64,000 nt of DNA. Source: Euphorbia lathyris (taxonomy: Eukaryota; Streptophyta; Magnoliopsida; Malpighiales; Euphorbiaceae). How positions within the stretch are numbered: the first letter of the stretch is position 1; each line of letters opens with the position of its first letter. The stretch is taken from contig NC_088917.1 of NCBI RefSeq assembly GCF_963576675.1, positions 32,208,501-32,272,500 of the forward strand, written 5' to 3'. The notes under the pieces are model-generated. The model searched no databases. It saw nothing but the letters and a program-made list of their open reading frames with translations, and was not told where the DNA came from. The position numbers were made by a program, and so were the translations under genes. Positions 4,381-33,681 of this stretch are shown here, piece after piece.

Positions 4381-6760
4381 TGTTAGACGAGGTGCCGCGG
4401 CCTAATCTCCCGGGCGGACCGGGGGGTGGACACCTCATGGCGACGTAAGCGGTGATTGGCGCCGAAAGCAACCAATCGTGGAATCAAGCTGCTCGGCAGG
4501 ACCGGAGCTCGGAGATATGGAAGAGTCGCCACCCACGAATGGGAAAATGGACACCGATCCCTTGCGGGAGACCATTGTGGGTTCGGGAAACTTAGGTACG
4601 AGCCGAGAAGGCTAGCTCCTTTCCAGAGAAAGGCTACTAGGCACCCCGACATCGCCCGGTTATGAACCACCGGCCTCCTACTCAACATGTTAGGCGATAA
4701 CGGACTAATCGTATATTTCTTTAAGTTTAAAATTCATTTGAAACCTTTTCTTTCTCGTTTTGAAAACCGTTTTGAGCATATATTATTGAAAAGTCATTTT
4801 AGTAAAGAATCACCCATTTACATCAGTTCAATATACATAGGAAAGAGAGGGGGAGAAGGAAGAATTGATTTATTTGTAACGTGATTTATGCTTCGTGTCA
4901 CATACTAATTCTATACTAATTCACTTCCCCAAAACGAGTTTATTTACATGGTTCGTACCTTAATCGCCGTTGGAACGATTTAGGTACGTTTCAAAACCCC
5001 ATTTAATGATGTTCACTCGAATCGCCGTTGGAACGACTCGGGCGTTGAAAATGTTGGGATAAAAGCCTTTGATAAGAAAACGTGGTTAAACATACAAGTC
5101 AATTTTATTTTGTACAAATCCTTTAAGAAAACGATTCAAAACTTCATTATTTACAATGAAAACGATTTTAATTACAAGGTTCGCTTAATCCGTCGTTGGA
5201 ACGGACTAAGGTTTTAAAACGTGATGTTTTGGAAATGATCTAAAGATGTCAAGAAAATATTATTTGCACTTTGAGAACCTCTAGAAAAGCTTTTAGTTTA
5301 AATAATCAAATTGAAAACTCTTTTTGGTGATTTATTTCCCCCTTTTGACTCAATGGACTCTTTACTTGTCATAATTACAACAATAAACATATTAAATCAA
5401 AATTCACTCCAAATAAAGCCCATTTGAAATATGGACCCATAAATGTCCAAAGAATAAAGAAAATAATATAGACATATTATATACATTTTAGCCAAAAAAC
5501 CCATGAAATATTTATAGAGAAAATAAGGATAAGTGAAAAGATACTATGTAATAAACATATAAGAAATGATAATAAAAATACTAAATATAATACATTTTTA
5601 CTTTAAACATGTGAAAATAATAGATAAAGCTCCTAAATAAGAAAATAACATTTATCCCCAAAATAGTTTCACCTAATAATAACTAGTATAACCCGAATAG
5701 CCCAAAAACTATATATATATATATATATATATAATGTAGTTTAAATATCAAAATAAAACCCATTATCCACAAAATATCTACTAATTAATTACTTCCAAAA
5801 CACTCAAGTAAATAACATTCTAAAATAAAATCCATTATCATTTAAATGAAGGAAAAAGAAAATATATATATATATGTATACTTATATTAGATTAAATCAA
5901 AAAATGATATATAAATATCCTAAATAACTATATGTACCAACTATCCAAAAATAGTTTGAAAACATTTATTACATAAATATACATATATGTACAAAGGATT
6001 AAAAGCTTAAAAGTTGAGAAAGATGGACCAAAACAGCATTTTTTTACATTCCAGCAGATTTACCGACGGAAAATCCGTCGGTAATCAGCAATTAGTGACA
6101 GAAAACGCAAATTACAGCAACACTCCAATTATTTCCAGATTTATTCAAAAGCTTTAAATTAAGTCTAATTCAATCGTTTTGGATTTCCGAACTACCAAAA
6201 ATGGATTATAGTCAATAACGGAAGTTCCTAAAACGACGTTTTTATTTTAAAACGTTATTTGGAAATTTCTTTTTTAAGAAACTTATAATTACAACGTCTT
6301 TTAATACCCGAACTACCTTTTTATAGGATCACGGTTCGTATTGGGATATCAAAATGAGGTCTTTATTTTAAAACAAAACCAAATTTTATTCAACACGAGA
6401 CGAAAATTAAATAAATACGCAAAATTAAATAAAACGTGGTAAATAAATAAATAGCTAAATAAATAAAATTATAACATAAAAATAAATAAAGGAAAAGAAA
6501 TAAATTAAATAAAATAAAACGAGTCTAGTCCTCGGATAATACCTTAAGTTCGGTATTGACGATTGAAGTCGGTTGATTCCACGAATCGTGCTTTCCCGAT
6601 ATTTTTTTGTGTTTTTAGTAAAATCTTAACTTTTAGGAAATTCAGAATTTTTAGGAAAAAAATGTTTTTTCCCAAAAAAAAGTCACTTCTCTCTCTAAAA
6701 TGTTATAGTGAGAAATTCCTCTCCCCAAAAATCCTCCTTAAAATGCATGGGGATCCGTGC

Positions 6761-6768
6761 CTTTTATA
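6761..6768 (-). promoter_or_regulatory. TATA box of the Tat-A 3' LTR
   Basis: The minus strand reads TATAAAAG followed by GCACGGATCCCC. It lies just downstream of the palindrome array, as expected for the U3/R boundary. The same element occurs in the other three Tat LTRs. Confidence 0.7.
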
Positions 6769-6785
6769 GGCATTGGATCCCCGGA

Positions 6786-6985
6786 AGGAATGGGCGACGC
6801 CCGAGCAAGATCGGGCGTCGCCCAAAAGGGTTGGGCGGCCGCCCAAGCCATGTTGGGCGGCCGCCCAACCTCCGTTGGGCTATCGCCCGCCGCCCAACAT
6901 TTGTTGGGCGATCGCCCAACAAATGTTGGGCGCTCGCCCAACGGCTGCCGGGCGCGCTCGCCCGACGCCTGTCGGGGTGCGTCTC
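6786..6985. repeat. Array of short GC-rich palindromes in the Tat-A 3' LTR (about 8 units)
   Basis: Successive units fit GTTGGGCG-NN-CGCCCAAC, an 8-bp arm, 2-bp centre and 8-bp arm, with centres GC, AT or CT. The outermost unit towards the TATA box is a variant GGGCGACGCCC. The array is immediately upstream (element sense, minus strand) of the TATA box at 6761-6768. Short ORFs through it on both strands are by-products of the repeat. Confidence 0.85.
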
Positions 6986-7352
6986 GCGCCGTCGGGCGTA
7001 CACGCACCGTGACTGTCGAGCGCACGCTCCGCGCCGCCGGGCTCGTGCGTCCAACGGACGTCGAGCGCGTGCCACTCGCAGTCGGACGTGTGCGTCCAGC
7101 GGACGTCGAGCGCGCGCCCCGTGCTGCCGGGCGGGCGTCCGACCATCGTTGGACGCGCGTCGGCTGCCGCTAGGCGCTCGCACCGCGCCGCTGAGCACTC
7201 GTGAGCCGCCCAATCGACGACCGCGACCCATTGCAACTTCTCCTTCCTTATTATATATTATATATTTTTTGTTTTTAAAACTTTCGGAATCAACCGTTTC
7301 AACCATCTTGTTTACAGGTTTTCATCACAGGTCCTTCGACTCGGTGTCTACA

Positions 7353-7380
7353 GTTGCCCCTACTTTCCTATTTTGACAGT
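7353..7380 (-). other. Tat-A polypurine tract and adjoining 3' UTR
   Basis: The minus strand reads AAAGTAGGGGCAAC directly against the LTR start TGTAGACACC. The identical motif precedes the Tat-B 3' LTR at 30903-30917. It is the expected primer for plus-strand synthesis. Confidence 0.75.
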
Positions 7381-7584
7381 GATGTGTATGTTTTGAAAAC
7401 GTTTTTTGCTAACGCAACACATGCAATGTAAAACATATAAAAGTAAAAGACACGTAAAGAGTAGGAAGAAGAATACCTGACCTTCGCGCTGCGCGTTCCG
7501 GTGTCGTTCTCCGATTCTTTCCAACCTCGCCTCTGAATCGGCCGTCGGTGGATGTTCTTCTCTCGGAATCTAGCGTACATTGAC

Positions 7585-8040
7585 TGTGGGTAGAACGGCT
7601 CAAAAGCAACTTGGTCTACGAGCGCGGGAATGATGGCTCAAAAGCGAACCTAGCCTACGACAATGGGTAAAATGGCTCAATAGCAACCCCGGCCTACGAC
7701 CGTGGGTGGAAATGGCTCAAAAGCGACCTTAGTCTACGACTGTGGGTAAAATGGCTCAAAAGCTACCCCGGTTCACGACCGGGGTAAAATGGCTCAAAAG
7801 CGACCCTGGTCCACGATCGCGGGTAAAATGGCTCAAAGGCGACCCCTGTTCGCGACCGGGGTAAGAATGGCTCAAAAGCAACCCTGGTCCACGACCGCGG
7901 GTAAAATGGCTCAAAAGCGACCCTAGTCTACGATAATGGGTAAGATGGCTCAACAGCAACCTCGGTCTACGACCGTGGGTGAAAATGGCTCAAAAGCGAC
8001 CCTAGTCTACGACTGTGGGTAAAATGGCTCAAAAGCAGAG
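7585..8040. repeat. 39-bp tandem array of Tat-A, upstream of the antisense gene
   Basis: There are about 11 units of 39 bp, each built around AATGGCTCAAAAGC and a variable ACGA-GGGT part. Units align base for base with the Tat-B arrays at 29800-30720. The array ends about 340 bases upstream of the TATA box of the antisense PMD gene, so it could act on that promoter. Confidence 0.8.
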
Positions 8041-8380
8041 ATTCTGAATTAACACACTGTTGTCTGTATTTTCTTACTAGAGCTAGTGTCTTGGATGTTT
8101 GAATGGTTCAATAGGAACGTATTTTAGTCTGGAATGATATAGACTAACGATTATTTTTCTGTTGACTGTCATCTGTATTTTGACTGGTACCACTGTTCTG
8201 TAAAAATTAGCTGTCATCTGGAGTTCATATCTTGACAGTATTGGCCACTGTCTGGGAGAAGCGCAGGCTGAAACGGACTACAAATCGGAGGTCTGTGCAC
8301 CTGGTAATTAATTATTTACTTTTTACCTTTATGTCACATCGTACCTTTTTCAGTATTTACGGGAATGCCATTCCCTCTTC

Positions 8381-8390
8381 CTATATAAGG
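8381..8390 (+). promoter_or_regulatory. TATA box of the Tat-A antisense PMD gene
   Basis: CTATATAAGG lies about 75-85 bases before the start codon at 8466. A pyrimidine-rich CTCTCTTCTCTCTC leader lies between them. The same arrangement is conserved in Tat-B (29441-29450 and ATG at 29364), which supports a real internal promoter. Confidence 0.72.
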
Positions 8391-8465
8391 TGGTGGGGTT
8401 TCATTTCAACCCCACACCTTCTCTCTTCTCTCTCTCTCTAGATTTTGATTTGGATTATTCTCGGT

Positions 8466-11400
8466 ATGGATTTGGATGAATACGATGGCACGAAAGGCAT
8501 GGAGGAGGTTTATGTGAACCTTGCTAGAGTGGACCCTTTCCACGACCCTATGACGCATCTGAGCCGGACACGCTGCAACGAGGTAAGTACTTTCTCACTT
8601 TTTCGTTATTTGATTCAAATTCTAGGCTTTAGTATCCCTATCCGAACATGATTTGCATGCTAATCTTTAGATCGCCTTAGAGGACTTTAGTTAGAAAACG
8701 TGAACTTCTTTACTTACGAGTAACACTTGTTTATTTTTGTGTAAGAATGTGCGCTATATGCATGTGAATAGTAAAACTACGGATTTATGCATGCTAACAG
8801 TAAAAATAACGTGAATAGTAAAAACGTGAATAGTAAAAACTTAACTAATGCACGTGAATAGTAAAAACTTTAACTAATGCATGTGAATAGTAAAAACTTA
8901 ACTAATGCACGTGAATAGTAAAAACCTTAACTAGTGCCCGTGAATAGTAAAAACTTTAGCTAATGCACGTGAATAGTAAAAACTTTAGCTAATGCACGTG
9001 AATAGTAAAAACTTTAGCTAATGCACGTGAATAGTAAAAACTTAACTAATGCACCTTGTCAATGCGGACGAGAGTGGATTAAAGAATAAAGAATTAACTA
9101 AATCCTACATAAACGACCCTAAAGGAGAGATTTTACAGAAAATTGGTCCAAATTGACCAGATGTCTCTAGGTTAGATTCTGACCGGAAGAATAACTAGTC
9201 TTAACGTGTTTTATCAAATGCAAGCTTAGGGACCATATTTAAACTTTCATGTCTTGTTCTTTCTAGTTCCTCGAGATTTCCGGGACCACGGCCGAGATCC
9301 ACGTGTGGTATTCTATGTTAGGAGCCGCGACGAGAGCCCGTGTGCGTGAGTTGGGCTTTGAGCCCTTTATTTCAGCGCTGACCTGCACCAATGGGGTGTG
9401 CGATCGCTTTGGCCTGCGGGCCCTATGCAAGAGGTGGGTTGATTCGACCCATACCTTCCACCTTTCTTTCGGGGAGATGACCATCTCGCCCCGAGATTTC
9501 TCTTTGCTGACAGGGCTGCGGGGGAGTAGCACTCCAGTTCCCTTCTGCTTTGACATGATACGTCCGCGGGTCGACCGCGCTAGGCTAGCCGCTTTGATTG
9601 GGCCAGGAGTTTACCCAGGTGCCAAATCCTCTCTAGCGAAGTTCATTTCTACCGCGAGCCTCTTGAGTCGCAGAGATTTTTGTGAGACGGATGACGCTGA
9701 CTTGGCTGTCCGTAGCTTCCTAGTGTACACTTTGAGTGAGACAATTTTCCGCACCAAGAGCGGGAAGGTACATGCTGGTCTTATTCAGGCTTTTAGCGAT
9801 TTGGATGCGGCGGCGTCTTATGATTGGGCGGGAGCGGGCTTAGCCTTCCTATATAAGTTTTTGGATTTGACTTACCGGAAGCGCAAGGACTTCGGAGGTT
9901 ACACTTTCGCTCTTCTGGTATGTGTGCACCCTGGACCTGTCCTTTCTACCTTCTTCACGCTTTCCGTTCGTAACCTTTGTTTTTATAAGCAGGTTTGGGC
10001 GTACGAGAGGCAGATTCTTCCTAGCAAGTCTCGGCGCCGGTCACGAGTACCGAGGCTCCCACTCATGACTCGGTGGAGAGAGTTCGATTTAGGCACAGAG
10101 AAGAGACGGACAGTGGTGCGGCTCTTAGACTGGATTGACTCGCGGACTTTGGGATAGGTAAATATCTCCTAGTCGTGCTAGATTCTTGTTTGATCGGATC
10201 TGACTTTTTCTTTGTGTTTTTAGATCAAGTTTAGGTGGGACGACCTTGGCTTCGGTCCTGACTATGCGTACGTGACTTTCATCCAGAAGCAGCAGTGCGT
10301 GCTCACCGGCCCTTGCGTGCGGGCCTGGTATTTGGGCGACCGGGGCATCACCGGGATTAGGGCCTCGCACTGGTCACCAGGTGAGATCCCTGTCTCCATG
10401 TTCGCGGTGCGGACCATGCCCTTATCGGTCATCCGTCAGGACTTGACCCGTCGATTCGTTGGTAGGGAGGTGTGGATTCACACCGGGGGTCGTGCTGCTT
10501 ACTTATCGACCTTGTTGAGCATGAGGGATGCCCCAGCGGTAGCGATGGAGGTGGACCCTGTGGCAGACATGTTTTCGCGGGAAGCCGTCGTGGCGGTCTT
10601 TAGTCAGGAGGAGGTCCCGGTGAGTGGTTCGGCCTATTTATCTTTATTCATGATATGGTTAGCGGTATTTATTGTGTTTCGATTTGCAGGAGGGATCCTG
10701 GAGGAGTGCTCATTTGTCAGACTTCTTTGACGGCGCTCGAGCTCAGACCTCTGCGAGCGAGCCACCTTACTATGTCGGCGAGTCCTCCAGTGCTGCCCGA
10801 CCGGAGAGATCCTCCTTGGGTGTGCCCGTCCCGGACTTCGGGAGAGATTTCGTGACCCTTTGTTATGATGAGTCCGGAGTGGCCTACGCCGGTGTCGAGA
10901 TGGCTCCTCCCGTCTTCACATCGAGGGTACCGTTTGACCCCTCCGACGCCTCCAAGACCACGAGAGAGACTTGTACTAATTACGTGGGGCTGTCCGGTTA
11001 CCTCAGAGACTGCTTCAGCTTGCACTGTGCTGACCACCTGGTATGTATCCTTGCTTTATTTTAGTGTAGTGGAATGCATGCATGTATGTATGATTTCTGT
11101 TCCTGCCTATGTTGCTTTTTTTTCATCTGTTTTTCTTTTTTTGTTCTTTTTTTTAGAGCGATCTTCACACCCATGAGCGGAGACGGAGTGAGTCGGTGAG
11201 GGAGGCTGATGCCAGGGTTGGCCAGGTGTACCAGGAGCGGAACGACCACTGGTCAGGGGTGATGCGGAGAGAGACTACTGGACGTCTTGTCGTTGAGGAG
11301 AGGGCGCGTGATGAGACCACTGGACGCCTCGCTGCTGAGGAGAGGGTGCGTGTTGAGACCACTGGATGCCTTGCTGCTGAGGAGAGAGCACGAGTTACCG

Positions 11401-11495
11401 AGGAGAGACTCCGAGTTACCGAGGAGACCTTATCTGCGGAGCGGGCGTCGCATTTGAGGGATTTTGAGGACTACTGGGATTTCCCTCCTTATTAG
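8466..11495 (+). pseudogene. Antisense accessory gene of Tat-A: six-exon plant-mobile-domain (PMD, MAIN-like) protein, one nonsense mutation
   Basis: Exons are 8466-8582, 9267-9917, 9993-10157, 10224-10619, 10690-11040 and 11157-11495. All introns are GT-AG and phase 0, giving 672 codons plus stop. Exon 2 shows the PMD signature (RWVDSTHTFHLSFGEMTIS, then LLTGL), YDWAGAGLAFLYKFLD and GGYTFALL, joined by splicing to VWAYER in exon 3, as in MAIN/MAIL proteins. Exon 6 encodes repeated EERAR-type segments, probably a coiled coil, and ends WDFPPY. The gene runs opposite to the retrotransposon and converges on pol. A TAG at 10155-10157 replaces the CAG present in Tat-B, cutting the product to about 310 residues. 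PMD proteins such as MAIN and MAIL1 act in transposon silencing in Arabidopsis; a role here is inference. Confidence 0.8.
8770..9053. repeat. Tandem repeat with CACGTG motifs in intron 1 of the Tat-A antisense gene
   Basis: About nine imperfect units of about 30 bp read GTGAATAGTAAAAACTTTA followed by GCTAATGCAC. Several junctions create CACGTG, the G-box core. The same repeat occupies the same intron in Tat-B (28725-29040). Confidence 0.8.
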
Positions 11496-11957
11496 GCTTG
11501 TCATGTATGACTTTGTAGTTTTTTTTTTATTAGGATTACCCCGATGTATAGCTGATGTATAGGGAGTGGGGCGGATAGTATATAGGCTTTTTATCGTAAA
11601 AAGGTGAGAAATGTATAACTCATGATTCGTATTACCATGCATTTAGTAGATTATGATGATTCCAATCATTCTCTTCAAATATATTCATGCCTTTATTTAT
11701 TTACAAACAACAGAAATACTTAGCCTCTTATACATTGTTTTTGTAATTGCTCAAGTTATAACTACTGTTACCAGGACCTGCCTTTCGGTTTTCGGATCCC
11801 GGTGATTTTTCGTCTCTCCTTTTACTATCCCGGAATTTTTAAATGAGTGCCCTTTCGGGTTTTCACCCATTGGGATATCCCTGATTGTTGCATAGGCCGC
11901 CCTTTGCGGGTTTTCAACCTATCAGAAATTTTCTTTATATTCTTTTTTTTCTTTTTT
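11496..11957. other. Tail-to-tail spacer between the Tat-A antisense gene and pol
   Basis: These 462 bases separate the stop codons of two convergent genes. The stretch holds T-rich runs and several GGGTTTTCA-type repeats, matching 25786-26283 of Tat-B. No ORF or RNA gene is recognisable. Confidence 0.6.
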
Positions 11958-14410
11958 TTACGAAAAGTATTTCTTGAGCCTATCCAGATTGGTAGGTTCG
12001 GAGAACTCCATGCCGTCCATGGTGGTAAGCTTCACCGCGCCTTTGCTCAGGATTTTCTTCACGAAGAATGGTCCTTCCCAGTTAGGTTTAAACTTGCCTC
12101 TGGGGTCGGTGTGCGTCACTCGGATCTGTTTCAGCATCAAGTCTCCCTCTTTGATAGGGCTGGCCTTGACCTTTTTGTTGAAGGCTCGGGCCATCCTTCT
12201 CTGATATAGCTGCACATGGTAAAGGGCTTCCATCCTTTTCTCGTCAACCAAAGCCAACTGCTCATATCGCTTCTTAACCCATTCCGTCTCGGGAATCTCT
12301 GCTTCCACTGCGATTCTCAACGATCGCTTTTCGATCTCAATCGGGAGGACTGCTTCTGTTCCGTATACCAAGGAGAATGGCGTTGCCCCAGTTGAGGTTC
12401 TAACTGTCGTGCGATAAGCCCATAACGCGAGTGGGAGCTGCTCATGCCAATTCCGATGTGATTCCACCGTTTTTATGAGAATTCTCTTAAGGTTCTTATT
12501 AGCTGCTTCTACTGCCCCATTAGCTTGTGGACGGTACGGAGAAGACCTGTGATGTTCAATGCCATATTCTCGGAAGAGACTTCTTACTTCCCCCTGAAAC
12601 TGGACCCCATTATCCGTAATCATGTGATGAGGCACTCCGAACCTGGTGATCAAGTGTTTCTCAATGAACTTTCTCATCTGCTTGGATCCCAATTTGCTAA
12701 ACGACTCTGCCTCTACCCATTTGGTGAGGTAATCGATGGCGACTGCAATAAACTTGTGCCCATTTGAAGCATTAGGCCTTACCTCCCCAATGATGTCAAT
12801 GCCCCAGGTCGCAAATGGCCAAATAGGTGCTAACACATGTAATTCCATGGTTGGAAGGTGACTACAATCTCCGTGGATTTGACAATCGTGGCATTTCTTT
12901 GCATATTCATTACAATCTCTTTCCATAGTGAGCCAATAGAAGCCTTGCCTGATGATTTTCTTTGCTAACGCCGCTCCTCCCATGTGGGCCCCGCAAATTC
13001 CTGAGTGTACCGATTCCATTGCCTCGCGGGCTTCTCCCGCATCCAAGCACCTTAGTTGTAATCCATCGATGTGCCTTTTGTAAAGCAAGTCGTTGTGGAT
13101 GACGAACTGCTAAGCTAACCTCCTAATCACGGCCTGATCCCTAAGTTCCGATTCCGCCGGGTATGTTCCACTCTTCATGAAGTTTACGATATCGAAATAC
13201 CACGGCTTTTCATCTGCCCCTAATAGCATCACGTCTTTGTAGCATGGTTTGTGAGATCTCCTCAATACCAACGGCTTCGAGGTAAGGTTTCGGGGATTAT
13301 CCCAAACTGACACCAAAGTGGCCAAAGCATCCGCTGCCTGGTTCTGTGCTCGAGGGATATGATGAAAACGACATTCCTGGAATCTTTGTGCCAAACCATC
13401 TAGCTGGTCTAGGTATGGACGTAGACTTTCTTCCTTCACTTCCCAGTTTCCTTGTGCTTGTTCGATGATCAGCTTTGAGTCGCCCCAAATTTCAACATAT
13501 GATGCCCTTAGTGCTGCTAGTGATTCCAACCCATAGATGCATGCTTCGTATTCGGCCATATTGTTGGTGAGAGGGAAGGATAACTTCTTTGCCATTGGGA
13601 TTCTTTCTCCTTCCGGTGAGGTAAGTAGTACTCCTACTCCGGCTCCATTCGAATTAACTGCTCCATCGAAGAACATTTTCCACGGTATAACTTCTATTGC
13701 GTTCAAGTGTTCATCGGGGAAATCATAGCTTATCTCTTCCTCTTCTGTATTCAGAGGTTGGTTGGCCAAAAACTCTGCCACGGCCCTCCCTTTGATAACC
13801 TTCTTCGTTACATATTCAATGTCAAACTCGGATAAAAGTAGTAACCATCGGGCTAGTTTCCCTGTCAAAGACGGAGTTCGGTACAGATACTTCACGGGGT
13901 CCATCCGAGAAATAATGATCACTTTATATGATTGAAAATAGTGCCGTAGTTTCTTTGTTAGCCATACTACTGCCACGCATGTCTTTTCGATCATGTTGTT
14001 CCTGAGCTCGTACTCCAAGAACTTCTTACTCAGATAATACACCGCGTGCTCCACACCGGTGTCTCCCTCTTGGGCCAGCATTGCCCCAATAGATCGCTCT
14101 TCGATCGCTACGTAGCGGAGAAGCGGTTTTCCTAGTTTAGGCGGTCTCAGCACTGGCGGATTAGACAAGTAATTCCGGACGCTCTCCAAAGCTTGCTGAC
14201 ATTTATCATTCCAGATTGTGGGTTGGTCCTTCCTTAATAACTTAAAGATTGGCTCGCAGATAGCGGTGAGTCTCGCTATGAACCGACTGATATACTGAAC
14301 CTGCCCCAGAAACCCTCTCACTTCTTTCTCATTCTTTGGTGCTGGCATTTCTCGTATGGCCTTCACTTTGTCGGGATCTACCTCAATTCCCTTGTTTCCG
14401 ATTATATAGC
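11958..14410 (-). pseudogene. Tat-A pol 3' part: end of RT, degenerate RNase H, second RNase H, integrase
   Basis: The frame runs from 14410 (residues IGNKGIEVDPDKVKAI, RT thumb) to a stop at 11958. The first RNase H has lost the usual catalytic YTDAS-like start (LRYVAIEERSIGAML). The second RNase H keeps all expected acidic positions: MFFDGAV, NMAEYEA, IWGDSKL and QAADALA. The integrase shows CHDCQIHG of the zinc motif, WGIDIIGE, MITDNGVQF and GAVEAANKN (D, D, E). One in-frame TAG at 13110-13112 separates the RNase H part from the integrase. The piece is cut off from the rest of pol (33682 onward) by Tat-B. It is about 95% identical by eye to the Tat-B integrase. Confidence 0.9.
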
Positions 14411-14821
14411 TGTAGACACCGAGTCGGAGGACCTGTGATGAAAACCTGAAAACAAGACGGTCGAAGCGATTGATTCCGGAAGTTTTGAAAAATATATAAA
14501 GAATAATAAGCGGAGGAAAATTAACGGCACGACGCGGGCGCGCAACGGCATCCCGCACGCGGACGACGATGGTCAAACGCCCGCTCGACGGCTCGAGACG
14601 TGCGCGCGGCGTCCGTCGGATGCACTGCGAGTGGCACGCTCTCGATGTCCGAGCAATGCCTGGGACCGCTGGCGGTGCGCGCCCTCGTGGGCTGTTGAGC
14701 GCACGTGCCTGGCAGCGTGGGGCGCGCGTTCGGCGGCCGCGACGTGCGAGCGTCTGGCTGTGTGGAACGCGCGCTCGGCGACCACGGAGTGCACGCGTCC
14801 GACAGCGCGGGGCATGCCTCG

Positions 14822-15060
14822 AGGGTCGCCCAACGCGTCGGGCGGACGCCCGACGAGGATTGGGCGCGGGCGCCCAACCTCGCGTTGGGCGCTCGCCCAA
14901 CGCCGTTGGGCGATCGCCCAACATTGTTGGGCGGCCGTCCAACTCATGTTGGGCGGCCGCCCAACAAGGTTGGGCGGTAGCCCAACACTAGGTTGGGCGG
15001 CCGCCCAACCACAATGGGCGACGCCCAAATTTTTTTGGGCGTCGCCCATTGTTCCGGGAT
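14822..15060. repeat. Array of GC-rich palindromes in the Tat-B 5' LTR (about 9-10 units)
   Basis: Units fit GTTGGGCG-NN-CGCCCAAC with centres GC, AT and CT, plus the variant GGGCGACGCCC repeated at the promoter-proximal end. The array stops about 10 bases before the TATA box region. Confidence 0.85.
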
Positions 15061-15069
15061 CCGCTTCCC

Positions 15070-15077
15070 TATATAAG
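15070..15077 (+). promoter_or_regulatory. TATA box of the Tat-B 5' LTR
   Basis: TATATAAG is followed by GGCACGGATCCC. Transcription should start about 25-35 bases further on, defining the start of R. Confidence 0.75.
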
Positions 15078-15777
15078 GGCACGGATCCCAAGGTGAAAGA
15101 GGAGGGCTTTTTTGGAAGAGGGAGGCTTTTAGGAGGGGATTTTTGGATAAACTTTCTCACTCTAAACATTTTTAGAGAGAGAGTGAATTTTTTGAGAAAA
15201 ATATTTTTTTTCTCAAAAATTCCAAATTTCCTAAGTTCAATTTTTTACTAAATTTTCATTAAAAAACGGGAGCTCGCGGTTCGTGGAATCAATCGGCTTC
15301 GACTGTCAGATACCGAATTAAAGGTATTATCCGAGGACTAGACTCTTTATTTTTCTCTCCTTCTATTTATTTTTTTATGCTATAGTTCTTATTCCTTTAG
15401 TTATTTATTTATTTTGTCACGTTTTATTTAGTTAGCGTATTTATTTAATTTTCGTTTCGTGTTAAATAAAATTCGGTTTTGTTTTAAAATAAAAACCTCG
15501 TTTTGGATATCCCAATATGAACCGTGATCCGATAAAAAGGTAGTTCGGGTATCGAAAATGTTGTAATTATAAGTTTTCTTTTTTAATTTAAAAGAGGTTT
15601 CCAAATAACGTTTTAAAATAAAAACATCGTTTTAGGAACTTCCGTTTTCGACTATGATCCATCTTTGGTAGTTCGGAAGTCCAAAACGATTGAATTAGAT
15701 TTAATTTAAAGCTTTTGAATAAATCTGGAAAATATTGGAGTGCTGCTGTAATTTGTCAATTCTGTCACTAAATGCTG

Positions 15778-15804
15778 TTTACCGACGGATTTTCCGTCGG
15801 TAAA
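15778..15804 (+). other. Perfect hairpin in the transcribed part of the Tat-B LTR
   Basis: Arms TTTACCGACGGA and TCCGTCGGTAAA are separated by TTT. The 3' LTR copy is near 32010; Tat-A carries a near-perfect version at about 6060-6083 and a mutated one at about 42262. Confidence 0.8.
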
Positions 15805-15988
15805 TCTGCCAATATGTAAAAAATGTCATTTCGGTCCCTTTTTCTTAACTTTTAGACTTTTAATCCTTAGTATATATATATATATATAATTATGTGATGT
15901 ATGTTTTCCAAATTATTTTAGAACTTTAGTACATATATTTATTTTAGAATATTTGTATATCTTCTTTTATCCCATTTTACAATATAAG

Positions 15989-16067
<79 letters not shown>

Positions 16068-16661
16068 TTACTTTGTGTTAATTTAGGCTACGTTTTAAAT
16101 GTTAATTATTTGGTATTTTTGGGAAATAATTAATATATATTAGTATATGATATTTTTAGTATTTAATGTGTATATATATAGTTTTGGGAATAGTTGAGTT
16201 ATTTTAATGATTATTGAGTGTAAATCATTTTTTATAAATATTATTTTCTTAGTTATAAGATTCATTTACTACTTTCACATTTTCAAAGTATAAGTATATA
16301 GTACTTATTATTTTCATATACATATAGTTCATTTTGTATTAGCTTTTATTCTCATATCCTATTTTTGATTTTAAATGTATATATGTATGCATAAATTACT
16401 TCCTTTATTCTTTTTTGCCTAATCTTATGCCCATATTTCAAGTGGGCTTTGTTTGAGTATTGATGGTGGTTTAAATGGGTTGTTAACATAATTAAAATAA
16501 TTAGACAGTCCATTAAATAAGTGGGTAAAATAAATCACAAAAAGAGAGTTTTTCAATTAAATTATTTAAACTAATGAGTTTTTTTGTAGATTTCTAAGGT
16601 AAATAAATAGGGTCATTCTTGTTAATATTTCAAATCATCTTCAAAACACCACGTTTTAAAA

Positions 16662-16919
16662 CCTTAATCCGTTCCGAAGGCGGATTAAAGGATCATTGTA
16701 ATTAAAATCGTTTTCGTTGTAAACAAGGAGTTTTGAATCGTTTTCTTAAATGATTTGTACAAAGTAAAATAGACTTGTATGCTTAGCCATGTTTTCTCAT
16801 TAAAGGTTTTTATCTCAAACGTTTTCAAATACTCGAGTCGTTCCAACGGCGATTCGAGTGAACTTCATCAAACGGGGTTTTAAAACGCACCCTAATCGTT
16901 CCAACGGCGATTAAGGTGC
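16662..16919 (+). other. Three consecutive hairpins with a shared 9-nt loop in the Tat-B U5/leader
   Basis: H1 (16662-16691) has arms CCTTAATCCG and CGGATTAAAGG around TTCCGAAGG. H2 (16831-16859) has arms ACTCGAGTCG and CGATTCGAGT around TTCCAACGG. H3 (16887-16919) has arms GCACCCTAATCG and CGATTAAGGTGC around TTCCAACGG. The stems differ in sequence while the loop is kept. Tat-A has the corresponding trio at about 41124-41380 and 4950-5215. Confidence 0.75.
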
Positions 16920-17486
16920 GAACCATGTAAATAAATCCGTTTTGGGGAAATAAGTTAGTGTAGAATAAACACACGACATAATATTTAATACGGTTGTAAA
17001 TAAATCACTTCTTTTCCCCCCCTCTCTGTGTATGTATAAACATAAATGGGTGATTCTTTACTGATGTGGCTTTTCAATAATATATGCTCAAAATGGTTTC
17101 TAAAAAGAGAAAGAAAAGGGTTTCAAATGAATTTTAAACTTAAAGAAGTATACGATTAGTCCTTTATCGCCTAACATGCTGAGTAGGAGGCCGGTGGTTC
17201 ATAACCGGGCGATGTCGGGGTGCCTAGTAGCCTTTCTCCGAAAAGGAGCTAGCCTTCTCGGCTCGTACCTAAGTTTCCCGAACCCACACCGGTCTCCCGC
17301 AAGGGATCGGTGTTCATTTTCCCATTCGTGGGTGGCGACTCTTCCATATCTCCGAGCTCCGGTCCTGCCGAGCAGCTTGATTCCACGATTGGTTGCTTTC
17401 GACGCCAATCACCGCTTACGTCGCCATGAGGTTGTCCACCCCCCGGTCTGCCCGGGAGATTAGGCCACGGCACCTCGTCTAACAAG

Positions 17487-17504
17487 TGGCGACTCTGCTG
17501 GGGA
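17487..17504 (+). other. Tat-B primer binding site
   Basis: TGGCGACTCTGCTGGGGA lies two bases after the 5' LTR end. Related Tat/Ogre elements use a tRNA-Arg primer with a site of this kind; the tRNA assignment was not checked. The identical 18-mer occurs in Tat-A. Confidence 0.85.
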
Positions 17505-19423
17505 AGCGAGAAATTTGATTCCAGAAGGCGTGTATTAAGCCCTTAACGGGGACGGATCGTTTTACTTCTTTTCGTATGCACTCATATGCATTATTGCAAA
17601 CCCTTTGGGTAATTTCCGCGAAACCTCTAGCGAGAGTCCATTCGTCGCTCGAAAGAGGCTAGCGTAAGTTCCCCCTTATAGTAAGGCGCCAGAGGGTCCC
17701 CATCCATTCGTTAGGGGCGAATCTGTGCGGTCCTGTGAGGTCCCGCGGTCAGCCGTGTCAGCATATAGTAGCATTAGAAGTTTCCATAGGATTACCCGTT
17801 ACTATTTTTGATGTGATAAATGAATCAGTTCGTGTTTTCAAACCGCCATGATACGTGTCTAATCCTAAGTTATGTAAAGAAAATGAGATGATGCGTTAAT
17901 ATATACTCATGAATCGACATACTAATTACCCTAAAACATCAAAACGATTTGAACTAAAGACGACTTAGTCATCTCATATGAATGAACATGTGCGACCCGC
18001 CTTGTCCCTTTCGGTGTCCCGATGAAGGCACGTGTTCAGGAAATACGCTATGACGTAAGCACGTATTAGTATGAATCGGTTCGGTGTTAAGGATAGTTAT
18101 ATTTCGATACAAAAGACTACATTAACGGTAGCCGTTATTCACGTTCTTTAGATAAATTGGGATAAAACGAGATCACGACGAAACGAAAACGAAGAACATT
18201 TCTGTTTCGAACGACCTTGTTGTAACGTGAAAAGTTTCGCACAAGTAGCCCGTCCCTTCCGAATAAAAGACGAGCTTTTACGTTATGCCTTGTGTCATTC
18301 TTAAGAGAAATGGACGTGTCCGCAAAAGGTGACTAAGAAAATAAAAAGACAAAAATGAACTAAACGACCAAAATCATTCCAAATCTACGATATATGTTAA
18401 TCCCGCGAGTAGTTAAAGAAAATAAACCAATGCCGTTGAATACGTGCCTCGAACGAGAGTATACTCCGTTTAAAATCTCGAAGCCGAATTAAGCCAAACC
18501 ATATAATTGCGCCATATGGACGAGACTGCGGGTTTTGACTAACGACTCGATCATTTCGACCGTTACCAAAACTGCAAGAAATATGGCCCGATATACGTGT
18601 TTGCTTAAATTCGCGCCTAAAGGAAAGAAAACGGTGATATCCTCGCTTCGAACAAACACGCGATTCAACGAAACGTTGATTTTCTATAACCACACTGAGA
18701 TGATATATCCCGTGGATTGGGAGGAACAAAGAGTTGTAATTAGCCGAAAGATTATCGTGCGCTCAAAATAAGACTCGCCATCTTTTCACGTAGCAAAATG
18801 AGCAAACGAATCCTCGACGCTAAGAACAAACACGTTAGGCGATGAGTCCGTTCCCTAAAATAAAATCCAAAAGTGATTCCATCACTAAATAAACACGTGG
18901 TTACGTCTCTCGATAGATCCAAAAGATCCCGTTGTAATCCAAAATCGAGACACGAACCCACGCGAACAAAAGGGAACGAATCATTGATAATAACGAACGA
19001 TTGGACTAGAAGAATAACTCGTACCACGTCTAAAAACTGAGATGCGCTCAAAGGGAGTCAAAACCCGAATTAATGCGTCTCGCGAAAGGACAAAAGACGA
19101 GTTATTCCGAAAGGACAATCCGCTTGGTCGATTTCTTAGTCACCGAACGTGGATACGTCAAAACGAACTGTATTGTCTGATGGATGATTTAATTTCCCGC
19201 AATAATCGACGGCATCACGCGTCCCCTGGACCGCAATGTGAGCCAAAAACCAAAATCCTAGGAAAGAGACCTGGACCAACGAGTGTGTGGAGGAATAAGG
19301 GTGGAAGAGAGATGTTGTGATACGTGTAAATAGAACTAACGTTTGTTCTTCTTATCTTATAATCGCAAATAAATAAACGCACACACCACGAATCATGCAT
19401 ATAAAAATCATGCATACATACTA
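17505..19423 (+). other. Tat-B leader region between PBS and gag
   Basis: This is about 1.9 kb without a recognised domain. It matches the Tat-A leader (38625-40530) along its length. Two short sense ORFs (18535-18771, 78 codons; 19042-19320) are seen; the first has the same start and stop in Tat-A. A long structured leader with packaging signals is normal for such elements, and no function can be assigned to the ORFs. Confidence 0.6.
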
Positions 19424-21456
19424 ATGGATACCGTTCGCGCAGACGTCATCATTAAGCGATTGTGGTTTCGCGAGAGTAATCGGCTTGTCAGACAGTTTGA
19501 TCAGCAGCGAGTAGACAGTTCCAAATCAGTAATTGTGGCTTCTGAATCATCTTCATCCGAGTATACTCAGTCTTCCGTCAGTATGTCTGCAACCAACGAG
19601 AAGGTGGCTGAATTGGAGAATTCTGTGAACAATATCAATGATCAGCTGGCCGCAATCTTGGCCCAGCTAGCTGAGTTAGCACTGAAGGACAACAAGAGTG
19701 GTAGTAAATGTGCTGAGAATGAGGTAAACGATGGCCCTCGCTTTGGGAATGAGGAGGATTATCAGGATTATGTCCGAAAACAGTTAGAGAAGGAGAAAGC
19801 TAAGGAAGAGGAGTGGAGGCAACACATCACACAGGAAGTGCAGGACTTGCGTGGGGGAAGCTCCGGAAATCAGGACTTCTATAACTTGAAGAATTGTTTG
19901 TCGGCAACAGCTCTGCCTCTGAAATTTCGTCTCCCCGACATGAAAAAGTTCGATGGAACTGGAGATCCCACCGCTCACATGAATCAGTATGTTGCGGTAA
20001 TGAAGCACACGATCCTGACTGAGGATCAAGTCCTGGGGCTGTTTAACACCTACCTAGAGGGGGCTGCCCTCACATGGTTCCATGCATTGCCTATGGTGAC
20101 AAAGAAGGATTGGAAGGAATTAGCGAAGTCGTTCATCGCTCAGTATAGCTTTAACACCATGCTGGAAGTCACTTTGAAAGAGTTAGAGAGCACTAAGCAG
20201 CAGACAGGGGAATCCCTTTCAGATTTCGTGAAAAGATGGAGGGCTAAGGCCGCGGTCATGAAACAGAAGCCGCTTGAGCAGGATCAGATCCGAATGGTGG
20301 TTGGCAACACGTTGCCGTATATTAAGAATGAGTTGAGATATATGCCGTTCATAGATTTCAATCAGATGTATAGTTGTGCCTTGACTGTCGAAGGAGATGG
20401 GGAGCCGAAGAAAGCTTATACTAAGTGGAAGAAGTCTGGATATAGTGCCGGAGGGCCTAGCGCGAGTACAGAATCTGCGGCAGTGAAAGTGGTTGATCTT
20501 AATGCCATCGAAAAAAGGCGGTTCGCCAAGTTCGATCAGACATACGCAAAAGTTTTCGAACGGTTGCAGAAAAAGGGGTTGTTGAAAGCCCTCACTCATT
20601 ATAACAAGGCACCACCCGCTCCGCGATTCAGGCTAGAGGGTATTGTGAGTTCCACAGCAGTTATGGACATACGATTGAGAATTGTGAGAGGCTGAAACAC
20701 GAAATCCAAGATTTGATTGAGGAGAAGAAGATAGATGATCCTTCGTCAGCGAACCCTTCCGTTAGGCGCAATCCATTGCCTAATCATAGGGTGAGTATGA
20801 TCGGGATCGGTCTGACAGAAAGTGTAGTGATGGAACCCTTCGGGGAGGACAAGGAGGAGTTGTTGGACTCCGATGAGAAGAATAATGTGGGAAATGGTTT
20901 GTATGTGTCGGCTTTGGAAGAGGAGCCAACGGAAGGAGTGATGGATGATAGAACTGAAACTGAGGAGACCGAGGAAGTCTCATCTCGGAGGATCATGCCT
21001 GTGTTGAAATTGTTTAGTGGGGTAGAAGACCCCGAAGCTCATTTGTATGGATACGTGTGTGCTATGTTTGGAGAGCCATACAAAGTGGAAGAAGTCGCTC
21101 CATGGTTCCATCTTTCGCTGGTGGGCGAACCTCTGAAGTGGTTTCAATCATTACCTGACGCGACTAAGCATGATTGGTCACTGATGTCAAGCTTGTTTTT
21201 GATGAAGTATCGAAGAGACAAAATACGGGCAGGGGAATATAGCGCAATGCAAATTGGGCCTATCAAACGTCCGTTTCCGACTGTCAACAAGTATAATAAA
21301 GGGAAGGACCCCATGGAGCACTTGCATGTTTATCTGTCGGCTATGAGTCCTCTAGGTTTCAAAGAGGAGGAGATCACGAGCTTGTTTTGCAACTCATTGG
21401 CAGGAGATTCACTAGTGTGGTACATGTCTCTTCCAATGCACGTTAAAGCAGATTAG
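19424..21456 (+). pseudogene. Tat-B gag: capsid-like module 1, zinc knuckle region, capsid-like modules 2 and 3
   Basis: ATG at 19424 opens MDTVRADVIIKRLW. Capsid-like module 1 starts at MKKFDGTGDPTAHMNQ (about 19938) and contains AALTWFHALP, KKDWKELAKSFIAQY and SDFVKRWRAKA. A one-base deletion near 20620, relative to Tat-A, shifts the frame just before the CX2HX4HX4C knuckle. Module 2 (LKLFSGVEDPEAHLYGY, EPLKWFQSLP) and module 3 (VNKYNKGKDPMEHLHVY, SLVWYMSLP) follow in the second frame. A TAG at 21454-21456 (TGG in Tat-A) ends this part. Gag builds the particle; the repeated modules are described separately as a finding. Confidence 0.85.
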
Positions 21457-21462
21457 GCAAAA

Positions 21463-24400
21463 ATGACTAAGAGATTCATCAAGAAATACGCCGCACGGGA
21501 ATGTCCAGAGGAAATGCCTGCATTACCCGAAGATGAGACACCTGAAGCAGTAATAGCCATGTCTAAGTATAAGGGAGATGAGAACCCCATTGATCACATA
21601 AACCGTTTCCGTGCCTACATGTTTGACGCGGGACTCTACCGAAGTGAGTTAGTCCATCATTTTCCAAAGACACTCATAGGAGAAGCTTTGGTGTGGCACC
21701 GAATGCTCGCGGCAAAGACAAAAGGAGACTGGGGATCCCTCATGGAGGCCTTTGTGCAGAGGTATGAGAGGTACATTCCGTGGACAGGGTCGTTGGAAGA
21801 TTTAGAAAGAATCAGGCAATTCCCTGAGGAACCATTTGTGGATTACGCTAGAAGATGGAGGTTCAAGTATGCCTCGTGTCGGGTCACCTTGAGTGATCAA
21901 GAGCAACTCATGTGCATCCGGAAGGGTGCTATTCCACTCGTGGCTAGAAGAATGAATGGAGTGTTCCTCAAGGACTATGAAGAACTGATAGGCTGGGCTC
22001 GGTATGGATCGTCAGACCCTTCCTACATAAATCCGAATGTCCCTCACATAATGGATCTGATGGTCGTGGACGTTTGGGGAAGTTCCTCCGACGAGGAAGG
22101 TATCAATCAGAGAGTTCCGATCAACATCTGGGATGAGTCTGATGATGAGTCGGAAGTGGCTGTTAGCGCCGAAGGAAAGATTGTGCCAGGATTCGAAATC
22201 TTCAATGATGTTGCCGACTGGGGCAAAGGAAAGGCGAGCTGCTTTGTCGAGGAGATCATGATGTTGGATTTAAATGCCGAGGAGCAGGTCATCACCATCG
22301 AAGCGACTGCGGGAGCGGTGGACGAGCCCAGTACCTCCAAGGTTCATGAGGAGCCCGAGAACCCTGATGATGAAAATTGTATTACTGCTTTGTTTGAATC
22401 AGATGATGTAATCACCCATGCTATCAATGAAATGAATTCTGATTTTGCTTACTTGCTTGATGTCGATCATGATCATTCCATGCATTCTCATTCATATAAC
22501 ATGCCTACATTTGAAATCAATACGATAGAAATGTCAACTTTCAATCTTGGTACGGATGAAAATCCTAAATTTATACAAATTGCTCAAGAACTAACTATTG
22601 AAGAGAGAAAAGAATTTGAGAGAATAATTAAAAAATACGAAATTGTATTCGCTTGGACATACGAAGACATGCCTGGAATTGATCAATCAATCGTAACTCA
22701 CCGTATTCCAACATATCCCGAGGCGAGGCCCGTAAAGCAGAAGCTCCGACGTATGAGACCCGAATGGGCAGATAAGATCAGAGAGGAGGTGAAGAAGCAG
22801 TTAGAAGCAGGATTCATCGAAGTGATCGACTATCCCCCTTGGGTCGCAAATGTAGTGCCCATCGCAAAGAAGGACGGCAAAGTGAGGATGTGCGTGGATT
22901 ACAGAGATCTTAACAAGGCATGCCCCAAGGATGAGTTCGCATTGCCTCATATCGATGTATTGATCGACAGTGCAGCGTCAAGCGTCTTACACACGAATGT
23001 GGATGGTTTCATGGGCTACATGCAAGTTCAGATGGCCGAAAAGCACAAAGCGAAAACCTCGTTCACAACTGAGTGGGGGACATACTGCTACAGGGTAATG
23101 TCGTTTGGTTTGAAGAATGCCGGGGCAACTTACCAGCGAATGGCTACAGCGCTGTTCCATGATATGATACACAAGGAGGTGGAAGTTTATGTGGATGACA
23201 TGATGGTCAAATCAGAGACAAGAGAAGGGCATTTTGCCGCGCTCGAGAAGTTTTTGGCCCGAATTGCAGAATTCAAGCTAAGGTTAAACCCGAAGAAGTG
23301 CTTTTTCGGCGTCTCGTCGGGGAAAATCTTAGGCTATGTAATCGGAAATAAGGGAATTGAGGTGGATCCCGATAAAGTGAAGGCTATAAAGGAAATGCCG
23401 GCGCCGAGAAATGAGAAGGAAGTGAGAGGGTTTCTGGGGCAGGTTCAGTATATCAGTCGGTTCATAGCGAGACTCACCACAATCTGCGAGCCAATCTTTA
23501 AGTTATTAAGGAAAGACCAACCCACTATTTGGAATGATAAATGTCAGCAAGCGTTGGAGAGCATCCGGAGCTATTTGTCTAATCCGCCAGTGCTGAGACC
23601 GCCTAAACTAGGAAAGCCGCTTCTCCTCTATGTAGCAATTGAGGAGCGATCTATTGGGGCAATGTTGGCTCAAGAGGGAGACACCGGTGTGGAGCACGCG
23701 GTGTATTATTTGAGTAAGAAGTTCCTGGAGTACGAGCTCAAGTACAACATGATCGAAAAGACATGTGTGGCAGTGGTGTGGTTGACAAAGAAACTGCCGC
23801 ACTATTTCCAATCGTATAAAGTGATCATTATTTCTCGGATGGACCCCGTGAAGTATCTATACCGAACTCCATCCTTGATGGGGAAGTTAGCCAGATGGTT
23901 GTTGCTTTTATCCGAGTTTGACATTGAATATGTGACGAAGAAGGTTATCCAAGGAAGGGCCGTGGTAGAGTTTCTAGCTAACCAACCCCTGAATGCAGAA
24001 GAGGAAGAAGTAAGCTATGATTTCCCCGATGAGCACTTGAACGCAATCGAAGTTATACCATGGAAAATGTTCTTCGACGGAGCAGTTAATTCGAATGGAG
24101 CTGGAGTAGGAGTACTACTTACCTCGCCGGAAGGAGAAAGGATCCCGATGGCCAAGAAGTTATCCTTCCCTCTCACTAATAATATGGCCGAATATGAAGC
24201 GTGCATTTATGGTTTAGAGTCATTAGCGGCACTGGGAGCATCATATGTCGAAATTTGGGGTGATTCCAAGTTGATCATCGAACAGGCACAAGGAAACTGG
24301 GAAGTGAGAGAAGAAAGGCTACATCCATATCTAGATCAACTAGAAGGGTTGGCACAAAGATTCAAGGAATGTCGTTTCTATCATATTCCTCGAGCACAGA

Positions 24401-25785: not shown

Positions 25786-26283
25786 AAAAAAAAAAAAGAA
25801 AAAAAAAAGAAAAATTCCCGATAGTTTGAAAACCCGCAAAGGGCGACCTATGCAACAATAAGGGAAATCCCAATGGGTGAAAACCCGAAAGGGCACTCAT
25901 TTAAAAATTCCGGGATAGTAAAAGGAGAGGAGAAAAATCGTCGGGATCCGAAAACCGAAAGGCGGGTCCTGGTAACAATAGTTATAACTTGAGGAATTAC
26001 AAAAACAATGTATAAGAGACTAAGTATTTCTGTTGTTTGTAAATAAATAAAGGCATGAATATATTTGACGAGAATGATTGGAATCATTATAATCTACCGA
26101 ATGCATGGTAATATGAATCACAGGTTATACATTTCCTATCCTACTTTTCACAAAAAGCCTACCTACTATCCACCCCACTCCCTATACATCAGCTATACAT
26201 CGGAGAAACCCTAATAAAAGCTACAAAGCAACAATGAAAGCTACAAAGCAACAATGAAAGCTACAAAGCAATACATAAGGAGC
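25786..26283. other. Tail-to-tail spacer between Tat-B pol and the antisense gene
   Basis: It starts with an A-rich run, then GGGTGAAAACCCG-type sequences also present in Tat-A. A 19-bp unit AAAGCTACAAAGCAACAAT is repeated near 26217-26260. No gene is seen. Confidence 0.6.
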
Positions 26284-29364: not shown

Positions 29365-29440
29365 CCCGAGAATAATCCAAATTGAAATCTAGCGAGAGAA
29401 AGAGGAGAGAGAAGGTGTGGGGTTGAAATGAAACCCCACC

Positions 29441-29450
29441 ACCTTATATA
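29441..29450 (-). promoter_or_regulatory. TATA box of the Tat-B antisense PMD gene
   Basis: The minus strand reads CCTATATAAG about 80 bases upstream of ATG 29364. Flanking sequence (GGTGGTGGGGTTTCATTTCA) is conserved in Tat-A at 8388-8407. Confidence 0.72.
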
Positions 29451-32211: not shown

Positions 32212-32255
<44 letters not shown>

Positions 32256-33676: not shown

Positions 33677-33681
33677 ATAGC

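What the first reader, a model, noticed from the sequence alone, without database searches (positions are those of the whole stretch)
8381..11495. A spliced host-like gene carried antisense by a retrotransposon, with exon lengths conserved to the base in two diverged copies
Tat-A (8466-11495) and Tat-B (29364-26284) carry a gene opposite to their own transcription. I read six exons in each, with lengths 117, 651, 165, 396, 351 and 339 bp, all introns GT-AG and phase 0. The five introns are 684/728, 75/77, 66/73, 70/83 and 116/101 bp, so indels are confined to introns, and both have a TATA box about 80 bp before the ATG. Introns on this strand would be removed if the gene were copied through its own mRNA, but survive in genomic RNA of the element, so the antisense layout lets a retrotransposon carry an intron-containing gene. 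Extra ORFs in Tat elements are known; this conserved multi-intron architecture is what I would check first.
Basis: partly seen in the sequence, partly recalled or inferred. Interest (0 to 1): 0.88.

Follow-up and report, generated by a model that had tools for sequence, protein, structure and literature searches.

The report
Intron-rich gene riding backwards in retrotransposon
A very abundant plant jumping element copied through RNA carries, on its opposite strand, a six-exon protein gene whose introns outlast the copying, which makes a little-understood kind of accessory gene directly testable.

Summary
Two nested Ty3/gypsy Tat-type elements (Tat-B inside Tat-A) carry, antisense to gag-pol between integrase and 3' LTR, a six-exon gene with exactly the stated exon lengths, coding for a plant mobile domain protein (PF10536). 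Of 39 further copies fetched, 38 were measurable: exons 1-5 keep their length in 33-38 of 38; introns hold 105 distinct indels in 1011 bp, exons 1-5 hold 14 in 1680 bp. Exon 6 is not constant (255, 297 or 339 bp, 42-bp steps). dN/dS is 0.11 between Tat-A and Tat-B and falls from 0.55 to 0.17 with distance among copies. The intron-4/exon-5 border pattern occurs at 1,482 places in the genome, the joined exon-4/exon-5 pattern at none. Both window copies have in-frame stops. PMD genes in gypsy elements are already published; I did not find this multi-intron antisense architecture in the papers searched. 'Host-like capture' is only partly supported: it is an old, element-resident gene. Splicing rests on annotation of relatives; function is inferred.

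The parts
4381..43619 (-). Tat-A, Ty3/gypsy Tat-type (Ogre-like) element, interrupted by Tat-B; 5-bp target duplication at 4376-4380 and 43620-43624
   Evidence: LTR pair about 4380-7352 / 40550-43619, K2P 0.022; flanks read
14411..33676 (+). Tat-B, related element nested in the pol gene of Tat-A; 5-bp target duplication at 14406-14410 and 33677-33681
   Evidence: LTR pair about 14410-17485 / 30917-33677, K2P 0.017; flanks read
8466..8582 (+). PMD gene of Tat-A, exon 1
   Evidence: 117 bp in 38 of 38 copies
8583..9266 (+). intron 1 of Tat-A copy, with 9 near-copies of a 15-base motif found in the window only in the two introns 1
9267..9917 (+). exon 2, most of the PMD domain
9918..9992 (+). 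intron 2
9993..10157 (+). exon 3; in-frame stop as last codon in this copy
10158..10223 (+). intron 3
10224..10619 (+). exon 4
10620..10689 (+). intron 4
   Evidence: acceptor border pattern at 1,482 places in the genome
10690..11040 (+). exon 5
11041..11156 (+). intron 5
11157..11495 (+). exon 6, Arg/Glu-rich repeat (possibly coiled coil), varies in 42-bp steps between copies
8304..8441 (+). inferred 5'-UTR intron (contains the TATA box at 8381-8390)
   Evidence: residues before the start Met in P0001 read from sequence just upstream of 8304 and continue at 8442; P0004 and P0008 use a donor a few bases further upstream and the same acceptor (junctions placed by eye); donor and acceptor in 39 and 40 of 40 copies
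29248..29364 (-). PMD gene of Tat-B, exon 1
27869..28519 (-). Tat-B exon 2 (one in-frame stop)
27627..27791 (-). Tat-B exon 3
27158..27553 (-). Tat-B exon 4
26724..27074 (-). Tat-B exon 5 (one in-frame stop)
26284..26622 (-). Tat-B exon 6
21457..25785 (+). Tat-B pol frame: RT, RNase H, second RNase H (RVT_3), integrase
11958..14410 (-). Tat-A RNase H to integrase, opposite strand to its PMD gene

Best explanation
An element-encoded accessory gene of the plant mobile domain (PMD) family, fixed antisense between integrase and the 3' LTR of a Tat/Ogre-type LTR retrotransposon. It is transcribed from a promoter on the minus strand, spliced (five coding introns plus a 5'-UTR intron, with alternative forms) and translated. 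Because only the sense genomic RNA is reverse transcribed, the gene's introns, which are not introns on that strand, pass unchanged through retrotransposition; the spliced antisense mRNA is not used as template. The lineage is kept coding by purifying selection between insertions, and each inserted copy then decays neutrally. Modules (LTR, gag, PMD gene) have been exchanged between element lineages by recombination. Shown: architecture, selection, presence of the introns in two retrotransposed elements and in the fetched copies, no spliced copy across intron 4, antisense layout in all copies tested. Inferred: transcription and splicing (from protein records of relatives), recombination as cause of the mosaic. 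Most likely function (my estimate 0.35): a nuclear factor that interferes with the host silencing in which the genic PMD proteins MAIN and MAIL1 act.
For: Exon/intron reading; PF10536 in both; dN/dS 0.11, 95% interval 0.08-0.14, 669 codons; in 40 copies median dN/dS 0.55, 0.35, 0.19, 0.17 over 780 pairs binned by dS; distinct indels 14 in 1680 bp of exons 1-5, 4 in 339 of exon 6, 105 in 1011 of introns, 38 copies; coding-intron splice dinucleotides intact in 38-40 of 40 copies at each site; integrase on the opposite strand in 20 of 20 copies tested, of 39; joined exon 4/5 pattern at 0 places in 1.02 Gb against 1,482 for the intron-4 acceptor pattern, and 47 of 47 held copies carry the donor and 45 the acceptor pattern; E. 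lathyris proteins with the same junctions, one lacking exactly residues 40-256 = exon 2; both window elements have LTR pairs and 5-bp target duplications, so both genes arrived by retrotransposition with introns inside.
Against: No RNA reads could be examined; the isoform records may be partly ab initio. Both window copies have stops, and only 7 of 39 fetched copies have no stop and no frame-shifting indel. Exon 6 varies, and decayed copies carry indels in other exons too. Some relatives depart: P0001 lacks 4 residues in exon 3 and 4 in exon 5, P0002 lacks stretches in exons 4 and 6. Only intron 4 was tested genome-wide for a spliced copy; the test for junction 2 did not complete. Copies were found through the gene, so elements without it were not counted. 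Function is unsupported by structure: the model was useless (mean pLDDT 32.6).
Confidence: 0.82

Rival explanations
1. Recent capture of an intron-containing host gene (MAIN/MAIL-like) by the element, carried as a passenger.
For: Introns and a TATA box look host-like; one relative is named 'protein MAINTENANCE OF MERISTEMS-like'.
Against: More than a thousand border sites in the genome; same orientation beside integrase in 20 of 20 tested; selection maintained across divergent copies; PMD is reported in 57% of Ogre elements and clades PMD-A1/A2 are reported as exclusively gypsy-encoded.
Confidence: 0.06
2. Two independent captures or replacements of the PMD gene in Tat-A and Tat-B, rather than one ancestral gene plus recombination.
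For: PMD is several-fold more diverged than pol and leader: fourfold-site transversions 45/245 against 16/298 in RNase H-integrase; intron transversions 69/958 against 28/1882 in the leader.
Against: Upstream and 3' flanks are shared at 0.88 identity and the gene sits at the same place; gag and LTR show a similar excess; within the family the gene is itself a mosaic (pairwise distances of exons 4-6 correlate 0.81-0.88 with each other, 0.04-0.27 with exons 2-3).
Confidence: 0.08
3. The antisense transcript works as RNA (dsRNA, phased siRNA trigger or decoy), and the reading frame is incidental.
For: Antisense transcripts can yield siRNAs (review PMC7264820, parts 1-2 of 3 read); PMD genes are large phasiRNA sources in tea (175 PHAS loci, PMC10673657, passages).
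Against: Codon-position pattern, dN/dS 0.11 and length-preserving exons need selection on protein. Both roles could coexist.
Confidence: 0.1
4. Annotation artefact: a run of ORF pieces that happens to be joinable.
For: No reads seen here; ORF scans see only pieces (longest stop-free stretch on the gene strand 296 codons in A, 183 in B).
Against: Splice dinucleotides 38-40 of 40, no codon pattern in introns, protein records with identical junctions.
Confidence: 0.02

Closest known systems
PMD-carrying Ogre/gypsy elements; clades PMD-A1 and PMD-A2 (PMC5418596, PMC6317226, PMC9289625; passages read)
   Same: PF10536 protein coded by a Tat-clade gypsy element; reported as a most prominent extra domain (57% of Ogre elements) and as exclusively gypsy-encoded clades
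   Different: The passages read give no exon-intron structure or strand for the PMD gene (PMC5418596: no occurrence of antisense, orientation or exon in the main text). PMC6317226 predicted extra ORFs as uninterrupted stretches of at least 250 codons, which would see only part of Tat-A's gene and nothing of the broken Tat-B gene
Antisense aORF-3R genes: Grande gene23, RIRE2, Retand TRP28 (PMC7264820, parts 1-2 of 3; PMC11963269, parts 1-2 of 5 and term search)
   Same: Antisense between pol and 3' LTR, own promoter in Grande, tandem repeats in that region in about half of the Retand elements
   Different: Different protein domain (TRP28 in Retand); found as single ORFs of at least 600 bp; 'intron' does not occur in the main text of PMC11963269; the 2020 review asks that spliced antisense transcripts be looked for
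Genic PMD proteins MAIN, MAIL1-3 (PMC5418596 and PMC7156037, passages; PMC9899485, listing and a term search without hits)
   Same: PMD domain
   Different: Host genes, MAIN and MAIL1 acting in silencing, not element-borne; no sequence comparison with them was made here
Ogre gag-pol intron (reported in PMC6317226, passages)
   Same: Splicing in the same clade
   Different: That intron is on the sense strand and is removed from only part of the transcripts; here the introns are antisense

Membership tests
Plant mobile domain (PF10536) | profile match above the gathering score | tested here: met
   88.8 and 91.0 bits against 34.9
Tat clade of Ty3/gypsy | second RNase H (aRH) besides RH | tested here: met
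   RT_RNaseH at 719-821 and RVT_3 at 873-990 of the pol frame; that RVT_3 stands for aRH is my reading
Ogre or Retand subclade | aRH between RH and integrase (criterion read in PMC6317226) | tested here: met
   RVT_3 873-990 precedes Integrase_H2C2 1085-1137 and rve 1157-1253
Ogre subclade | primer binding site complementary to tRNA-Arg | not testable with these tools
   Sequence after the 5' LTR read; no plant tRNA-Arg sequence at hand
Ogre subclade | position in an RT tree | not tested
   no reference RT set fetched
[quoted passage not shown]
   place and strand met in the window and beside integrase in 20 of 20 copies; copies were found by the gene, so the share of elements lacking it is unknown
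PMD-A1/A2 clade | tree position among plant PMDs | not testable with these tools
   protein searches, each scoring about 8,000 candidates, returned E. lathyris relatives plus one Rhodiola and one Paspalum protein
MAIN/MAIL genic PMD | gene outside transposable elements | tested here: not met
   lies within LTR pairs with target duplications

The most novel reading that the evidence does not exclude
The introns are not relics but part of how the element works: an antisense multi-intron gene lets an RNA-copied element keep a fully 'gene-like' transcription unit (TATA box, 5'-UTR intron, repeat-bearing first intron, alternative splicing) that host silencing treats as a normal spliced gene, and whose PMD product counters the MAIN/MAIL silencing pathway. 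Retention of introns in more than a thousand copies would then be selected, not merely tolerated.
Probability: 0.2. Interest if true: 0.82.

Novelty: new variant of a known kind. Interest (0 to 1): 0.58.

Why it matters
The papers that I read describe antisense extra genes in plant retrotransposons as functionally unexplained, and the surveys among them found such genes as single ORFs. Here one such gene is a conserved six-exon gene, with selection and intron retention measurable over many copies. It shows how ORF-length surveys can miss or truncate such genes, gives a natural counterpart of the retrotransposition-intron reporter, and offers exact junctions at which transcription, splicing and a role against host silencing can be tested.

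Tried and rejected
Structure: AlphaFold2 of P0001 with 7 sequences gave mean pLDDT 32.6; no fold search was made with it. Solved structures: no match up to E=1 for the 256-residue N-terminal part. Relatives in viral contigs and genome contigs: none confirmed. Three protein searches reached E. lathyris proteins plus one of Rhodiola and one of Paspalum, so no plant-wide tree. Intron divergence against synonymous divergence was not used as a test of intron constraint, because third positions are richer in C/G and introns need gapped alignment; taken at face value introns 1, 4 and 5 (K2P 0.19-0.26) are less diverged than synonymous sites (dS 1.16), which I leave unexplained. Ages from LTR divergence (K2P 0.022 and 0.017) would be roughly 0.6-1.6 million years with recalled plant rates of 0.7-1.3e-8; only the order (Tat-B younger) is used. 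Some counts were recomputed from the proportions.

Dropped before counts: L033 from the length and indel counts (its exons 5-6 are hardly alignable; identity 0.55 and 0.38) and; it is included, with 19 distinct indels in exons 1-5, 8 in exon 6 and 107 in introns when counted. The 39 fetched copies are the 39 best matches besides the window's own among 40 scored of 2009 candidates, so a biased, Tat-A-like sample. The 8 copies were picked by hand, spread along the listed places (100 shown, two contigs, of 1,482).

In one search the script's search for both ends of intron 4 succeeded in only 9 of 47 copies because of a strict expression; all 9 would have met the joined pattern.
Full report
What is there. 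The window is G000:C8:32208501-32272500 of a 1.02-Gb genome. Two contig lengths of that genome (81,185,342 and 96,320,253) equal those given for the E. lathyris proteins P0006/P0007 and P0004; three others differ slightly from those given for P0001-P0003, as between versions of one assembly. I take the host to be Euphorbia lathyris. Two related LTR elements are nested: Tat-B (14411-33676, + strand) sits in the pol gene of Tat-A (4381-43619, - strand). Both have LTR pairs of about 3 kb and perfect 5-bp target duplications. LTR pairs differ by K2P 0.022 (A) and 0.017 (B), in agreement with B being the later insertion. The pol frame of Tat-B has RT, RNase H, a second RNase H and integrase in that order, the arrangement given for Ogre and Retand elements within the Tat clade in PMC6317226 (passages read).

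The gene. The product is a plant mobile domain (PMD, PF10536) protein, 88.8 and 91.0 bits against a cut-off of 34.9, with an Arg/Glu-rich C-terminal repeat. Mismatches between the two copies pile up at third codon positions in exons (exon 3 alone not significant, p=0.11) and show no such pattern in the five introns or the two gene flanks; the element's leader, a further control, gave a marginal p of 0.042. Aligned piece by piece there are no gaps in 2019 exon bases and 23 gap openings in 958 aligned intron bases. dN/dS over 669 codons is 0.11 (0.08-0.14).

The two copies are broken. Tat-A has one in-frame stop, Tat-B two.

I fetched 39 further copies, the best matches to Tat-A exon 2. Without one truncated copy (L033), exon 1 has 117 bp in 38 of 38, exon 2 651 in 35, exon 3 165 in 35, exon 4 396 in 35, exon 5 351 in 33. 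Exon 6 is 255 bp in 28, 297 in 6, 339 in 1 and other in 3: the main lengths are 42 bp, 14 codons of the repeat, apart. Distinct indels: 14 in 1680 bp of exons 1-5, 4 in 339 bp of exon 6, 105 in 1011 bp of introns (38 in 327 without intron 1); introns 3 and 4, with one each, are nearly as constant as exons in this group. Splice dinucleotides of the five coding introns are intact in 38-40 of 40 copies at each site; start codon in 40 of 40. Median pairwise dN/dS falls from 0.55 (dS below 0.05, 199 pairs) through 0.35 (263) and 0.19 (191) to 0.17 (dS 0.2-0.4, 127 pairs): close pairs carry mostly post-insertion decay, distant ones show the selection between insertions. Seven of 39 copies have neither stop nor frame-shifting indel. 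Eight more copies, spread along a list of pattern matches, are closer to Tat-B (exon 2 identity 0.85-0.98 to B, 0.79-0.82 to A); exons 3 and 5 have 165 and 351 bp in 8 of 8; exon 4 396 in 4 and off by one base in 4; exon 2 651 in 3; exon 6 339 in 5 and 318 in 3; of the 8 splice dinucleotides examined (introns 2-5), 6 are intact in 8 of 8 and 2 in 7 of 8.

Introns through retrotransposition. If spliced mRNA of this gene were used as template, joined exons would be found. The pattern across the exon 4/5 junction occurs nowhere in 1.02 Gb at up to two mismatches (one match to the reversed control pattern), while the intron-4/exon-5 border occurs at 1,482 places (781 + 701; control 1). These are places, not verified genes. 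All 47 held copies carry the donor and 45 the acceptor pattern. The same test for junction 2 did not complete by the machine. In 20 of 20 copies examined, integrase lies some hundred bases downstream on the opposite strand.

Is it spliced? I saw no reads. Indirect evidence: E. lathyris proteins in public records have the same junctions. P0003 and P0007 align without any indel over residues 171-672 and 56-479; P0008, named isoform X6, lacks exactly residues 40-256, that is exon 2; P0004, isoform X2, has 15 extra residues exactly at the exon 2/3 junction, which read like the beginning of intron 2. Against: P0001 lacks 4 residues in exon 3 and 4 in exon 5; P0002 lacks stretches in exons 4 and 6; P0005 and P0006 differ in exon 6. 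That NCBI isoforms usually rest on RNA data is recalled. In P0001 the residues before the start Met read from sequence just upstream of position 8304 and jump to 8442; P0004 and P0008 use a donor a few bases further upstream and the same acceptor (junctions placed by eye). This implies a 5'-UTR intron (8304-8441 in Tat-A) that contains the TATA box; its donor and acceptor are conserved in 39 and 40 of 40 copies, the TATA box exactly in 36. Either two starts exist or the TATA box is not the only promoter.

A mosaic history. Tat-A and Tat-B are 0.94 identical in the leader and 0.90-0.92 in RT and RNase H-integrase, 0.88 in the flanks of the PMD gene, but 0.67-0.83 in PMD exons, 0.55-0.83 in its introns and 0.80 in the LTR; gag is also more diverged in synonymous sites (0.78 against 0.40-0.51 in RT and integrase, 1.16 in PMD). 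Like with like, fourfold-site transversions are 45/245 in PMD against 16/298 in RNase H-integrase (p=2e-6), and intron transversions 69/958 against 28/1882 in the non-coding leader (p=2e-14). Within the gene, pairwise distances of exons 4-6 correlate with each other (0.81-0.88) and poorly with exons 2-3 (0.04-0.27; the choice of copies by exon 2 narrows that range). Exchange of modules between element lineages is the simplest reading (inference).

What is known. PMD in gypsy elements is established: 57% of Ogre elements (PMC6317226, passages); clades PMD-A1 and A2 exclusively gypsy-encoded, with host MAIN and MAIL1 acting in silencing (PMC5418596, passages); PMD the most frequent extra domain of gypsy consensuses in one survey (PMC9289625, passages). 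[quoted passage not shown] PMC11963269, parts 1 and 2 of 5 plus term search). I found no description of a conserved multi-exon antisense gene of this kind in searches, from whose listings I opened ten papers, mostly for passages only; the library lacks most subscription papers, and Steinbauerova et al. 2011 I know only as cited.

Mechanism and verdict. Shown: an old, element-resident, selected, intron-bearing antisense gene, with no spliced copy found across intron 4. Inferred: minus-strand transcription and splicing. The reason that introns survive follows from the retrotransposition cycle: only the sense RNA is reverse transcribed. Function is open; that the host PMD proteins MAIN and MAIL1 silence elements makes interference with that pathway the best guess (0.35), as the authors of PMC5418596 speculate for MULE-captured PMDs. 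Novelty: a new variant of a known kind.

Noticed in passing
34335-38660 (-): The gag-protease frame of Tat-A has three separate Retrotrans_gag (PF03732) matches in a row and a G-patch domain; Tat-B has gag in 19373-20692 and again at residues 68-157 of 21457-25782. A multiplied capsid domain in one element would be unusual (my impression).
   Followed up: partly
8583-9266 and 28520-29247: Intron 1 of both PMD genes holds nine near-copies of a 15-base motif (GTGAATAGTAAAAAC) absent from the rest of the window.
   Followed up: no
7353-8046 and 29791-30916: 39-bp tandem array between the PMD gene and the 3' LTR in both elements.
   Followed up: no
Tat-B 22163/22164 against Tat-A 34852-35856: Tat-A has about 1 kb between gag and RT that Tat-B lacks.
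   Followed up: no
43757-46206: Integrase core and ATHILA ORF-1 (PF03078) matches next to Tat-A: another, Athila-like element.
   Followed up: no
53685-59356: Short element with 98.6% identical 511-bp ends and gag-RT frames.
   Followed up: no
52234-53255: 29-bp tandem repeat array.
   Followed up: no
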